A stretch of 38,790 nucleotides of DNA from an uncultured Verrucomicrobia subdivision 3 bacterium (GTDB lineage: Bacteria > Verrucomicrobiota > Verrucomicrobiia > Limisphaerales > UBA11358), in assembly GCA_903918885.1 (NCBI GenBank), contig CAIXFY010000032.1:1-38790 (forward strand), given 5' to 3'. Positions 2,084 through 25,885 of the stretch are shown here, piece by piece. The translations under genes and the position numbers were made by a program. The stretch's first letter is position 1, and each line of letters starts with the position of its first letter. The notes under the pieces are model-generated. The model searched no databases. It was not told where the DNA came from and saw nothing but the letters and a program-made list of their open reading frames with translations.

Positions 2084-3751
2084 TCACAGCCGGTTCAGCG
2101 CGCTCAACACGGCTTTCACCGAGGCAAGTTCGATATTCGTGTCCACGCCCGCGCCCCAGCGAGATTTGCCATCGGCGGATTTAATCTGGATGTAGGCAAT
2201 CGCCGCCGCCCCTTCGCCGGAGCTCAAGGCGTGCTCGCTGTAGTTGGTGATTTCAAATTGCGCCGCGTATGAAATCTGGCAAATGCCATTAACCAATGCT
2301 GCCAAGGGCCCGTTGCCGTTTCCATTTATTCCAGTTTGAACTTCTTTGAAATAGAGACTTCCCTGACAATTTACTTTCCCATTTTTACTATAAGTAGAGA
2401 AGTTTTCGATATTCCACGGCGAGGTTCGTTCGATGTATTCTTTCCAGAACATCGCCTTCAACTCTGCTCCGGAAACTTCGCGACCGAGCTTGTCCACCGC
2501 GTCGTTGGCAATTGGGCCGAACTCGCGCTGCATATCTTTTGGCAACTCGATGCCGAATTCACTTTCGAGCAGATACGCCACGCCGCCCTTGCCGGACTGC
2601 GAATTGACGCGGATGACCTCGCGGTATTCGCGCCCAATGTCCGCCGGGTCAATCGTGAGATACGGCACGTCCCAAGGGGAGCTGGAATTTTTCTCGCGCT
2701 CGGCGAGGCCTTTCTTGATGGCGTCCTGATGCGAGCCGCTGAACGCGGTGAAGACCAATTCGCCCGCGTAGGGCTGACGCGGCGGCACGGTCATGCCAGT
2801 GCTGCGTTCATAGACATCAATGATTGAACCGAGATTGGAAAAATCCAACTTGGGATCAATGCCGTGCATGTAGAGATTCAGAGCCACGGTCACGATGTCC
2901 AAATTGCCGGTGCGTTCACCGTTGCCGAATAATGTTCCTTCCACGCGGTCCGCGCCGGCCAACATTCCCAATTCCGTCGCCGCCACGCCGGTGCAACGGT
3001 CGTTGTGCGTGTGCAAGCTGATGATGAGCGAATCGCGATTCTTAATGTTGCGGCAAATCCATTCAATTTGATCCGCGTAAACGTTCGGCATCGCGACTTC
3101 GACCGTGTCAGGCAGATTCAAAATCATTTTGTGTTGCGGCGTAGGCTGCCACACATCCATGACGGCTTCGGAAATTTCCTTCGCGTATTCCACTTCGGTC
3201 ATGCTGAAACTTTCCGGCGAATATTGCAGCATCACTTCCGTGCCGCCAGCGGTGAGACGATGCAACCGATCCTTGATCATCCGCGCGCCGTTGACAGCGA
3301 TGGCTTTGATCTCGTCCTTCGACTTACCGAACACGACGCGGCGTTGCGCGGGTGAGGTCGAGTTATACATATGGATGATGACTCGCTTTGCGCCAATCAG
3401 CGACTCGACGGTGCGCTCAATCAAATCCTCGCGCGCCTGCACCAAGACCTGCAACCAGACGTCGTCCGGCGCGTGGCCTTTTTCAATGAGCAATCGGTTA
3501 AAAGCAAATTCTGTGTTCGACGCGGACGGAAAGCCGACTTCGATTTCCTTGAACCCGATCTTCACGAGCGTCTGAAATAATTCCAGTTTCTGCGAAATGT
3601 TCATCGGCACGGCGAGCGCCTGATTGCCATCGCGCAAATCCACACTCGCCCAGCGCGGCGCTTGCGTGAGCGTGCGGCGCGGCCACTGGCGGTCGGTCAA
3701 CTTCGGCGCGTGTTGGAACGGCTGGTATTTTTTAGACGGGTCGTTTTGCAT
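2084..3751 (-). CDS. leuA: 2-isopropylmalate synthase (long type)
   Basis: Catalyses the committed step of leucine synthesis, condensing acetyl-CoA with 2-oxoisovalerate. The protein (about 555 residues) is of the long LeuA class. It shows the HMGL-type TIM barrel with SVDLRDGNQAL near the N-terminus, the metal-binding HTHNDR motif, GNGERTGNLD, and a C-terminal LeuA allosteric domain ending in a conserved GxGVDTNIELAS-like block. The start at 3751 (MQNDPSKKYQPF) fits the family N-terminus; an in-frame ATG at 3778 would add nine residues, and neither has an obvious Shine-Dalgarno. Expression is probably controlled by the leucine leader/attenuator at 3792-3952. It heads a minus-strand run with the cytochrome, coiled-coil and bioB genes. 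Confidence 0.95.
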   Translation of the reverse strand: MQNDPSKKYQPFQHAPKLTDRQWPRRTLTQAPRWASVDLRDGNQALAVPMNISQKLELFQTLVKIGFKEIEVGFPSASNTEFAFNRLLIEKGHAPDDVWLQVLVQAREDLIERTVESLIGAKRVIIHMYNSTSPAQRRVVFGKSKDEIKAIAVNGARMIKDRLHRLTAGGTEVMLQYSPESFSMTEVEYAKEISEAVMDVWQPTPQHKMILNLPDTVEVAMPNVYADQIEWICRNIKNRDSLIISLHTHNDRCTGVAATELGMLAGADRVEGTLFGNGERTGNLDIVTVALNLYMHGIDPKLDFSNLGSIIDVYERSTGMTVPPRQPYAGELVFTAFSGSHQDAIKKGLAEREKNSSSPWDVPYLTIDPADIGREYREVIRVNSQSGKGGVAYLLESEFGIELPKDMQREFGPIANDAVDKLGREVSGAELKAMFWKEYIERTSPWNIENFSTYSKNGKVNCQGSLYFKEVQTGINGNGNGPLAALVNGICQISYAAQFEITNYSEHALSSGEGAAAIAYIQIKSADGKSRWGAGVDTNIELASVKAVLSALNRL

Positions 3752-3791: not shown

Positions 3792-3828
3792 TAAAACAAA
3801 AAACCCACCGCCGTTCGGCAGTGGGTTT
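3792..3828 (-). terminator. Intrinsic terminator of the leuA attenuator
   Basis: On the minus strand AAACCCACTGCC (3828-3817), loop GAAC and GGCGGTGGGTTT (3812-3801) form a 12-bp stem with one G-U pair. It is followed by TTTGTTTT (3800-3793), a typical U tail. It lies between the leader peptide stop (3849) and leuA, so it would stop transcription before leuA when the hairpin forms. Confidence 0.88.
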
Positions 3829-3865
3829 CGTTAAATCTTTAGAACGAATCAAAACCCGACCGCCG
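3816..3865 (-). promoter_or_regulatory. Antiterminator competing with the leuA terminator
   Basis: The last codons of the leader frame, CGGCGG (3865-3860) and GGGTTT (3857-3852), can pair with CTGCCG (3821-3816) and AAACCC (3828-3823). An inner CGTT/AACG stem (3846-3843 with 3832-3829) closes the loop. The 3' side includes the whole 5' arm of the terminator, so the two structures exclude each other. A ribosome stalled at the Leu codons would leave the 5' arm free; one reaching the stop codon would cover it. Confidence 0.75.
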
Positions 3866-3917
3866 CGCGGCTAAGCAGCAGCGCGTTCGTAATCAGCAGG
3901 TTCAGATTTTTGTTCAC
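3849..3917 (-). CDS. leuL: Leucine leader peptide (attenuation peptide)
   Basis: A 22-codon frame begins with GTG at 3917 and ends with TGA at 3849-3851. The peptide begins MNKNLNLLITNALLL and has six Leu codons (5, 7, 8, 13, 14, 15) plus one Ile and one Val. The run of three Leu codons (3881-3873) is placed 7 to 13 nt before the antiterminator arm. An in-frame TAG four codons upstream (3927-3929) rules out a longer peptide. No Shine-Dalgarno is visible; the likely promoter would place the transcript 5' end at or next to the GTG, suggesting leaderless translation. Leu-rich leaders before leuA are established regulators in other phyla; the assignment here rests on composition, position and the two alternative hairpins. 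Confidence 0.82.
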   Translation of the reverse strand: MNKNLNLLITNALLLSRAAVGF

Positions 3918-3923
3918 GGCGTC

Positions 3924-3952
3924 AAACTAGTGGCGTTGCCTCTGGCGGTCAA
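3924..3952 (-). promoter_or_regulatory. Probable sigma70-type promoter of the leu leader/leuA operon
   Basis: Minus strand TTGACC (3952-3947), a 17-nt spacer and TAGTTT (3929-3924). The -35 matches 5 of 6 consensus bases; the -10 matches 3 of 6, at T1, A2 and T6. Only six bases separate the -10 from the GTG of the leader frame, so initiation would fall at about 3918-3916. Confidence 0.4.
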
Positions 3953-4014
3953 CATTTTTGTCTGGCTGGAAATGAGGTTGCCGCTGTTTGCGGTTTTGGC
4001 CTAACCTCACCGCA

Positions 4015-5736
4015 ATGAAAAATTTTCTGAAGCGCGACGGCGACGCCATTTTTCCAGCCGCGCTGGCCGTGGCACTGCTGGCCGGAATTTTTTTGCGGAC
4101 GTATCTGTTTACCGCCCAGGTTTTCATTGATGACGAGTGGCATGGTTTTTATTACGCGCTCGGCAAATCCCCGCTGTGGCTGCTGACACATTTCTCGATT
4201 CCGGGCGCGACGTGCATCCCGCTGAATTTTTACACCTGGCTCCTCGGCTTCTGCGGTGGATGGTCGGAAATGTGGCTGCGATTGCCATCGCTGGCTTGCG
4301 GAATTTTGTGTGTGTTGGTCTGCCCGCTGCTCGCGAAAAAAATAATCGGAACGCGCCAGTCCGGTTGGCTGGCATTGCTTTTAGCAATTTCGCCGATCCT
4401 GATTTTTTACAGCCGCATTTGCCGCCCATATAGTGCCGTGGCCCTGCTCGGCGGTGCCGCTCTGCTCGGCGCGGCGCGCTGGCAACAATCGGGCGAATTT
4501 CGTCCAGCGCTGCTTTTTGCCGTGTCCGGCGTGCTGGCAGTTTATTTTCATCTGTTCGCCGTCGTCACAGTAGCCACGCCGGTGCTGGTCGCGATAATTT
4601 TCCACCTGTTCGCGCGAGTGATGAAAAAGAAAACGATAGCCGGGCCGTCGCTGCGCCAATGGCTATTGGTCGCGGCCGGCATGGCGCTCGCGGGTGCGGC
4701 GCTGGTTTTGCCCGCGCTGGTGCATTCGATGCAAAGCACTTTTTTTACAATCGCATTGAAAGGAACATTCAGGCTGGAATCGCTGCCGCGCGCGGCGATG
4801 CTCGTCAGCGGCACGGGGTCGCCGGTGCTGGCATTAATGTTCTGGTTGCTCCTGCTGGCGGGCGCAGTTGAACAATGTCGCCGCAACCTGTGGTTTGGCG
4901 TCACGCTGGTGAGCCTTTATCCACTGCACGCGTTGGCATTGATATTTTCACGACCTGACGGGACACAAAGCGCCATCGTGCTGGCGCGTTATTGCATTCC
5001 GCTCGTGCCGGTCAGTCTGTTGCTAGTCGCCTGCGGTTTACAATGGAGCCTAAATTTTCTGGCTAGGCACGTCGCTTTGCGGCCAGCTTCACAAATTTTG
5101 CTGGCCGGTGCCTGCATCAGCGCGCTGGTCTTTGCCGGGCCGCTGCCGCAAACCTACGTGTCGCCTAATAATTTTACGAGTCACGGAGCCTACCAGCATC
5201 GCTACGCGCCGATTGATTGGAGCCAATCATTTTATAGTGATTTCACGCCGGTAGATTTCACGCTCGTCACCACCATTCGCGCGGATGAAATTTCTCCGTT
5301 TTACAGCCAGCTGGCAACCGAGCGGAATCATCGGCCGGTCATCGAATATCCGATGCTGATCGGCGACCATTTCAACCCGTTTTATTATTACCAACATTTT
5401 CACAAACGTCCGGTCTTGGTCGGTTACGCGACCGATGTGGCACTGTCACACGGTTTGGCGGCGGGAAATATTTTCGGCAACACATACGTTGACCAGGTCT
5501 TGAGCTTGGTAAAGAATCCGAAGCAACTAAAATTCCGCAACCTAGTTCCACTCGACAATCTCACAGCGATGCGTTCGAGCGATGCGGAATATGTCATCCT
5601 GCACAGACATTTTGAGGCTGACCTATCGCTGGTCGCGGCGACGCTGCCGGATGTGGAACGCTTAAGCCGCGAGTATCGCGCAAAAATTGGCGCTCCCGTT
5701 TATGAAGATGCGAACTTAATCGTGTTCCGACTTTGA
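4015..5736 (+). CDS. GT-C membrane glycosyltransferase (GT39/ArnT-like)
   Basis: A 573-residue integral membrane protein with an N-terminal transmembrane helix followed by FIDDEWHGFYY (acidic pair at residues 39-41), the acidic first-loop motif of GT-C enzymes that use polyprenyl-phosphate sugars. Many further hydrophobic helices follow up to about residue 385, then a soluble C-terminal domain of about 190 residues, presumably outside the membrane. It most likely transfers a sugar from a lipid carrier to a protein or glycan. The ATG at 4015 gives a normal N-terminus; a TTG at 3988 would add nine residues. It is divergent from leuL and convergent with another GT-C gene, only 24 nt away. Substrate is unknown. 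Confidence 0.75.
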   Translation: MKNFLKRDGDAIFPAALAVALLAGIFLRTYLFTAQVFIDDEWHGFYYALGKSPLWLLTHFSIPGATCIPLNFYTWLLGFCGGWSEMWLRLPSLACGILCVLVCPLLAKKIIGTRQSGWLALLLAISPILIFYSRICRPYSAVALLGGAALLGAARWQQSGEFRPALLFAVSGVLAVYFHLFAVVTVATPVLVAIIFHLFARVMKKKTIAGPSLRQWLLVAAGMALAGAALVLPALVHSMQSTFFTIALKGTFRLESLPRAAMLVSGTGSPVLALMFWLLLLAGAVEQCRRNLWFGVTLVSLYPLHALALIFSRPDGTQSAIVLARYCIPLVPVSLLLVACGLQWSLNFLARHVALRPASQILLAGACISALVFAGPLPQTYVSPNNFTSHGAYQHRYAPIDWSQSFYSDFTPVDFTLVTTIRADEISPFYSQLATERNHRPVIEYPMLIGDHFNPFYYYQHFHKRPVLVGYATDVALSHGLAAGNIFGNTYVDQVLSLVKNPKQLKFRNLVPLDNLTAMRSSDAEYVILHRHFEADLSLVAATLPDVERLSREYRAKIGAPVYEDANLIVFRL

Positions 5737-25809: not shown

Positions 25810-25885
25810 TGGTGCTCCCACCCGGAATTGAACTGGGATCAACGGTTTAGGAAACCGCTGCTCTATCCATTTGAGCTATGGGAGC
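25810..25885 (-). tRNA. tRNA-Arg(CCU)
   Basis: A complete cloverleaf is visible on the minus strand: acceptor GCTCCCA/TGGGAGC, D arm GCTC/GAGC with a GG-containing loop, anticodon arm with loop TTCCTAA (anticodon CCU, reading AGG), variable TGAT, T arm with loop TTCAATT and one A-C mismatch, discriminator A and an encoded CCA. Total 76 nt. Confidence 0.95.

What the first reader, a model, noticed from the sequence alone, without database searches (positions are those of the whole stretch)
3792..3952. Complete leucine attenuator before leuA in a probable verrucomicrobial genome
Seen directly: a 22-codon frame with six Leu codons, a 12-bp intrinsic terminator with a U tail, and an antiterminator formed by the leader's own last codons and the terminator's 5' arm. 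The arm CGGCGG-TC-GGGTTT in the leader nearly copies the terminator's 3' arm GGCGG-T-GGGTTT, so both compete for the same partner. The Leu-Leu-Leu run lies 7-13 nt before this arm, the right place for a stalled ribosome to leave the arm free. It uses three RNA segments rather than the four of the enterobacterial leu and trp leaders. Leucine leaders are established in proteobacteria and actinobacteria; I am not aware of one described for this phylum, but cannot check.
Basis: partly seen in the sequence, partly recalled or inferred. Interest (0 to 1): 0.85.

Follow-up and report, generated by a model that had tools for sequence, protein, structure and literature searches.

The report
Leucine attenuator before leuA
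A short leucine-rich reading frame and a premature stop signal sit in front of a leucine-making gene, so that shortage of leucine should let the gene be read; the same kind of switch stands before this gene in most examined genomes of one order of Verrucomicrobiota, in front of either of two different enzymes for the step.

Summary
The minus strand carries GTG leader VNKNLNLLITNALLLSRAAVGF (3917-3849), a 13-bp terminator (3829-3800) and leuA (3748-2084). Leader plus terminator precede leuA in 103 of 108 upstream regions read from the genus and the rest of the order (Limisphaerales). Arms of all three competing helices pair better with their own partner than with partners from other families (47 families); shuffled arms do not. 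The element has four segments, not three. Two further results. (1) A TTGACC-17-TAGTTT promoter ends 6 nt before the start codon, a spacing shared by many relatives, so the leader mRNA is predicted leaderless. (2) Genomes with the other enzyme, LeuA1 (about 28% identical), carry the same leader before that gene: 53 of 53 such loci read, chosen for an RNA-model hit. ilvB of the window's genome has a parallel valine leader. Ribosome-mediated attenuation is a known kind, and leaderless leucine leaders are in print for Streptomyces. Ten searches of an open-access library gave no paper that I recognised as describing one in Verrucomicrobiota. Regulation is inferred; nothing was measured.

The parts
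3924..3952 (-). Promoter-like site: -35 TTGACC (3952-3947), 17-nt spacer, -10 TAGTTT (3929-3924); ends 6 nt before the leader start codon
   Evidence: Sequence; the spacing to the start codon recurs in relatives. The standard scan did not flag it
3849..3917 (-). Leader peptide frame, GTG start, VNKNLNLLITNALLLSRAAVGF, TGA stop; six Leu codons
   Evidence: conserved frame in relatives
3856..3896 (-). 1:2 hairpin: Leu-codon segment 1 pairs with segment 2; predicted to shield segment 2
   Evidence: Fold; leader more stable than synonymous recodings; arms matched within families
3850..3864 (-). Segment 2: 5' arm of the antiterminator, coded by the leader's last codons
3817..3830 (-). Segment 3: 3' arm of the antiterminator and 5' arm of the terminator
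3800..3829 (-). Intrinsic terminator hairpin (segments 3:4), 13 pairs
   Evidence: pair counts over 75 sequences
3792..3799 (-). T-rich tail of the terminator
   Evidence: Sequence
2084..3748 (-). leuA, 2-isopropylmalate synthase, yeast type (NCBIfam PRK03739, leuA_yeast); the controlled gene
   Evidence: 805.6 and 721.1 bits, both above cut-off

Best explanation
A ribosome-mediated transcription attenuator that senses charged leucyl-tRNA and controls leuA. RNA polymerase starts at or within a base or two of the leader's GTG, so that a ribosome loads directly on the 5' start codon (inferred from promoter position). When leucine is plentiful the ribosome reaches the stop codon and covers segment 2, segments 3 and 4 form the terminator, and transcription ends before leuA. 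When charged leucyl-tRNA is short, the ribosome stalls at the Leu codons and breaks the 1:2 hairpin, segment 2 captures segment 3 as it emerges, and the polymerase reads on into leuA. Shown: the parts, their conservation, and co-evolution of the three helices. Inferred: translation of the leader, stalling, read-through, transcript start.
For: Leader plus terminator in 40 of 41 leuA upstream regions read in the genus (the 41st has Ns) and 63 of 67 read in the rest of the order. Own arms pair better than arms from other families: 2:3 by 1.44 kcal/mol, 33 of 47 families; 3:4 by 3.49, 47 of 47; 1:2 by 1.96, 40 of 47; permutations as low as observed 0-3, 0 and 0 per 1000 in ten draws. Shuffled or reversed arms give differences near zero, the largest -0.77 for reversed 3:4. 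The leader folds better than the mean of synonymous recodings in 100 of 103 and 2:3 in 101 of 103. The upstream gene is divergent (3988-5736, plus strand), so the terminator serves no upstream operon. Promoter-to-start distance: 82 of 153 leaders have a promoter by a strict rule, 67 of them ending 6-8 nt before the start codon; shuffled sets give 0.4 at 5-8 nt. RNA model R1: 137 of 146 order genomes at E 1e-4, a few of them only through the related ilvB leader.
Against: No expression data. Five of 108 upstream regions have no readable leader: four judged by eye to have neither part, one with Ns. In the full-length RNA the terminator is part of the lowest-energy fold even with a ribosome masked at the Leu codons, so antitermination must be kinetic; and without a ribosome, at the end of segment 3, 2:3 is already preferred in the window, so 1:2 too must win kinetically. 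Column-wise covariation is weak for 1:2 (outer 82.5%, inner 89.7% paired against 81.5% and 89.1% in shuffles; 37 and 44 of 500 shuffles as high), modest for 2:3 (1 of 500), clear only for 3:4 (0 of 500). RNAalifold did not draw the 1:2 hairpin. With a codon pool from the same family's leaders the 1:2 excess shrinks (94 loci, mean z -1.10, 83 negative, window -0.83). 71 of 153 leaders show no promoter by the strict rule.
Confidence: 0.9

Rival explanations
1. The terminator simply sets a constant level of read-through, and the leader frame is an accident or codes for a small peptide with a function of its own; no leucine sensing.
For: No expression data; a short hydrophobic peptide could have its own function.
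Against: Leu-rich frames at 15-26 nt from the terminator in the 156 leaders analysed; their last codons pair with the terminator's 5' arm with matched differences between families; ilvB has a Val-rich frame in the same position.
Confidence: 0.05
2. A T-box, riboswitch or protein-bound leader such as the actinobacterial LEU element.
For: The LEU element also precedes leuA and has Leu-rich frames (PMC1262725, passages seen).
Against: No Rfam family reaches its gathering score in this region; 13 sub-threshold matches up to E 10 (best E 0.035), no T-box among them. The LEU element is described as a pseudoknot at the translation start; here an intrinsic terminator is nearly universal.
Confidence: 0.03
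3. Three-segment attenuator: no functional 1:2 hairpin, only leader arm versus terminator.
For: In the window the outer 1:2 stem is weak and 2:3 is preferred at the end of segment 3 without a ribosome; column covariation of 1:2 is weak.
Against: 1:2 arms are matched within families (40 of 47; 0 per 1000 permutations) and the leader folds better than synonymous recodings in 100 of 103, less strongly with a stricter codon pool.
Confidence: 0.1

Closest known systems
Enterobacterial leu operon leader (classical four-segment attenuator; Rfam Leu_leader; both from recall)
   Same: Leu-rich leader peptide, competing antiterminator and terminator before leuA, protector hairpin
   Different: Not among the Rfam matches even at E 10; predicted leaderless start; heads either of two enzyme types
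Leucine leaders LeuL1 and LeuL2 of Streptomyces lividans (PMC8079986, passages seen)
   Same: Short Leu-rich leaders reported as transcribed leaderless, LeuL1 before leuA; -10 TAnnnT on average 6.3 nt from the transcript start
   Different: LeuL1 is reported to lack a typical terminator; here the terminator is present in nearly all
Sinorhizobium meliloti trpL (PMC7298713, passages seen)
   Same: Attenuator whose RNA starts with the leader's start codon
   Different: Tryptophan, another phylum, different RNA
Actinobacterial LEU element (PMC1262725, passages seen)
   Same: Upstream of leuA, carries candidate Leu-rich frames
   Different: Described as a conserved pseudoknot, held unlikely to work by classical attenuation
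Leucine-rich attenuator peptide of Staphylococcus aureus branched-chain genes (PMC5794164, search listing only)
   Same: Leucine-rich attenuator peptide
   Different: Another phylum; not read

Membership tests
Ribosome-mediated transcription attenuator | Leader frame rich in codons for the end product, before the biosynthetic gene | tested here: met
   6 Leu of 22 codons; at least 4 Leu in the last 20 codons of 155 of 156 leaders
Ribosome-mediated transcription attenuator | Intrinsic terminator between leader and gene | tested here: met
Ribosome-mediated transcription attenuator | Mutually exclusive antiterminator kept by matched changes | tested here: met
   column counts weaker
Ribosome-mediated transcription attenuator | Leader is translated and stalling causes read-through | not testable with these tools
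   Needs ribosome profiling and reporters
Rfam leader families | Match at the family's gathering score | tested here: not met
   a tRNA elsewhere is the window's only match; 13 matches up to E 10, none at its gathering score
T-box | Match to a T-box model | tested here: not met
   No T-box in the answers
Actinobacterial LEU element | Conserved pseudoknot at the leuA start | not tested
   No alignment of the LEU element was held
Leaderless leader mRNA | Transcript starts at the start codon | tested here: inconclusive
   Promoter position only: 67 of 82 promoters found among 153 leaders end 6-8 nt before the start codon; no 5'-end data

The most novel reading that the evidence does not exclude
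The leader is a control cassette that has outlived its enzyme: across Limisphaerales one homologous, leaderless leucine attenuator stays while the gene behind it changes between two distantly related 2-isopropylmalate synthases (LeuA1 or LeuA2), by repeated replacement under the same leader, and sometimes it travels with the gene between families.
Probability: 0.45. Interest if true: 0.6.

Novelty: new member of a known kind. Interest (0 to 1): 0.45.

Why it matters
It adds an order of a poorly studied phylum to the groups with a leucine attenuator, with enough sequences (156 leaders, 47 families) to see three competing helices co-evolve. The same leader in front of two different enzymes for one step lets one ask whether the regulation or the enzyme is the older unit. 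The predicted leaderless start makes a clear test of how a ribosome on a 5' start codon keeps pace with the polymerase.

Tried and rejected
Rejected: T-box, riboswitch and Rfam leader families. Rejected: terminator of an upstream operon (the upstream gene is divergent). Rejected as the whole story: three segments. RNAalifold on 75 sequences drew the terminator and three stray pairs but not the 1:2 hairpin; I then used duplex energies and synonymous recoding. Not shown: in-place replacement of the enzyme; flanking genes of G078 and G109 did not match each other, and the tree of leaders is too short to resolve (20 changes of enzyme type against 44 in shuffles, but only 2 forced by supported branches). 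Tried without result: the asd-like gene with a Thr-rich leader, 0 of 58 order genomes at E 1e-60; its own genome G131 was not in that draw, so this shows little. The standard sigma-70 scan did not flag the leader's promoter. Weaker R1 hits in the window's genome (E 0.003 and above) were looked at in three cases and not claimed.

Full report
What is there. On the minus strand, between a divergent gene (3988-5736, plus) and leuA, lie a 22-codon GTG frame with six Leu codons (3917-3849), a 13-bp terminator with a T-rich tail (3829-3792) and leuA at 3748-2084. The gene product matches the yeast-type 2-isopropylmalate synthase models above cut-off. A scan of the window on both strands for a Leu-rich leader plus terminator finds only this place, and finds none in 2000 shuffles of the intergenic region.

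Where it comes from. Contigs of genus and order mates have the lengths and content of named records titled 'Limisphaerales bacterium', 'Verrucomicrobia subdivision 3 bacterium', 'Pedosphaera sp.' and the like (for example G002:C265 and PKZR01000369.1, both 17,774 bases), so I take the order to be Limisphaerales. This is not a formal placement of the window.

Conservation. Of 49 genomes of the family (all one genus), 43 match this leuA at E 1e-60. I read 41 upstream regions, the window's included: 40 have leader and terminator, and one (L010) has the terminator but Ns in the stretch before it. The other two matches begin inside the gene and were not read. In the order, 76 of 146 genomes (drawn evenly, at least 85% complete) have this leuA. 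I read 67 of the 68 outside the genus; 63 have leader and terminator, four (L070, L085, L089, L100) have neither by my eye. Total 103 of 108. A few of the accepted ones were also judged by eye (L076, L087, L093 with a poor T tail, L105).

RNA model. R1, built from 75 of these leaders, scores 111.8 bits in the window. At E 1e-4 it has one other place in this genome, before ilvB (31.7 bits); weaker ones start at E 0.003. It hits 137 of 146 order genomes at E 1e-4. That number includes genomes whose only hit is the ilvB leader, such as G040. In a draw of 194 genomes over the phylum it hits, at E 1e-6, the window's own and one other, G347 (36.4 bits, before a LeuA1 gene); the genomes listed there belong to other orders, 172 were not listed. 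The two thresholds differ, and large draws use stricter filters.

Helices. Duplex energies of own arms were compared with arms from other families over 156 leaders (103 LeuA2, 53 LeuA1) and 47 families. For 2:3, 3:4 and 1:2 own arms are better by 1.44, 3.49 and 1.96 kcal/mol, in 33, 47 and 40 of 47 families; 0-3, 0 and 0 permutations per 1000 reach that. With the 3' arm reversed or shuffled the differences lie between +0.19 and -0.38, except -0.77 for reversed 3:4. Leaders fold better than the mean of synonymous recodings in 100 of 103 cases, and 2:3 in 101 of 103; with a stricter codon pool the 1:2 excess is smaller. Column counts are clear for 3:4, modest for 2:3 and weak for 1:2, whose columns hardly vary. 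The best single case is a matched change in all three segments (alignment column 64 G to A, 126 C to T, 138 G to A) in two loci of one family, L072 and L086.

How it works. Masking a ribosome at the stop codon leaves only the terminator. Masking it at Leu codons 13-15 leaves segment 2 free, and 2:3 forms when the polymerase has passed segment 3. In the full-length RNA the terminator is in the lowest-energy fold in every case tried, so the choice must be kinetic. The third codon position varies more than the first two in codons -20 to -13 (1.79 against 1.46 and 1.50 bits), as expected of a translated frame, but not in codons -12 to -1, where the RNA pairs.

Predicted leaderless start. In the window TTGACC-17-TAGTTT ends 6 nt before GTG. 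Of 153 leaders with 55 nt upstream, 82 have such a promoter by a strict rule; the gap to the start codon is 6, 7 or 8 nt in 48, 13 and 6 of them. Dinucleotide shuffles give 3.8 promoters per set, 0.4 of them at 5-8 nt. A Shine-Dalgarno-like word stands before the start in 3 of 153 (9.1 in shuffles), but also before only 12 of 156 leuA genes, so its absence alone says little. Start codons were chosen by peptide length near 22 (GTG 109, ATG 44 of 153). In Streptomyces lividans leaderless transcripts show the same -10 form and a mean distance of 6.3 nt, and LeuL1 and LeuL2 are reported leaderless (PMC8079986, passages).

One leader, two enzymes. LeuA1 (NCBIfam leuA_bact, above cut-off) is 26-30% identical to LeuA2. 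LeuA1 is in 69 of 146 order genomes, LeuA2 in 76, both in two (G096, G142). Of 60 R1-hit loci that I fetched to see what follows, mostly in genomes without LeuA2, 53 are before LeuA1, six before ilvB, and one before a gene cut short that begins like LeuA2. All 53 have a leader and terminator of the same build; they were chosen by R1 hit, so this is not a rate. As a rate: of the 69 LeuA1 genomes, 52 are among the 53 read, in nine more the listed coordinates put the R1 hit directly upstream, seven have no R1 hit, and G073 could not be placed. R1 was built from LeuA2 leaders only. In family f31 the leader of G078 (LeuA2) is nearest to that of G109 (LeuA1), 81% identical. In G142 and G096, of different families, LeuA2 is 97.5% identical, which suggests transfer of gene and leader together. 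Repeated replacement is my reading; the tree of leaders is too weak to count events.

Parallel valine leader. Before ilvB of the window's genome lie MLKVSSQAFSLVVVVVSDAVRAC and a terminator. Of 42 genus genomes with ilvB, 30 loci were read; 29 have a Val-rich leader, the 30th (L273) is cut by the contig end. In L275 the terminator next to the leader was not the top-scoring hairpin.

Other groups. Of 80 named LeuA2 loci, 45 upstream regions were scanned. Leu-rich frames followed by terminators also occur in MAGs labelled Nitriliruptoraceae (L144), Spirochaetaceae (L149, L161) and Desulfocapsa (L155), and Verrucomicrobiaceae-like loci (L126, L127, L128, L148) have a conserved Leu-rich frame without an evident terminator. 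So leucine leaders before leuA are not peculiar to this order; this RNA seems to be.

What is in print. Ten searches of an open-access library listed no paper that I recognised, by title and start of abstract, as describing a leuA attenuator in Verrucomicrobiota; the few listed papers that name the phylum were not opened. The main text of one broad attenuator survey (PMC2965389) holds neither leuA nor the phylum's name. Most subscription papers are not held. A 2010 survey by Lopatovskaya and others, cited in PMC4833913, was not read and could contain one.

Noticed in passing
L112 (G000:C15:32845-32926, minus): Val-rich leader and terminator before ilvB in the window's own genome; Val-rich leader in 29 of 30 genus loci read.
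   Followed up: yes
L307 (G131:C184): Thr/Lys-rich frame MTRLLTSKTNTKTTKTTTKTTLVFGRQAERT and a terminator before a gene that looks like aspartate-semialdehyde dehydrogenase (named from recall, not scanned); 0 of 58 order genomes matched that gene at E 1e-60.
   Followed up: partly
L114 (G000:C20:53917-54037, plus); similar in L309 (G006): Short frame with an IW-R-RR stretch and a terminator before a small protein of unknown function, in the window's genome and in G006; no run of one amino acid.
   Followed up: no
L126, L127, L128, L148, upstream of leuA: Conserved Leu-rich frame in Verrucomicrobiaceae-like loci with no evident intrinsic terminator; perhaps another mechanism.
   Followed up: no
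L321 and L323 (G142, G096): LeuA2 97.5% identical between two families that also keep LeuA1, suggesting recent transfer of gene and leader.
   Followed up: partly
L316 (G347:C59:30517-30628, minus): Weak R1 hit outside the order, before LeuA1, with a Leu-rich stretch.
   Followed up: no
L128, L129, L138: Records titled Akkermansia muciniphila carry leuA only 67-75% identical to the window's; the labels look doubtful.
   Followed up: no
25813-25885, minus: tRNA gene, the only Rfam match in the window at the gathering score.
   Followed up: no
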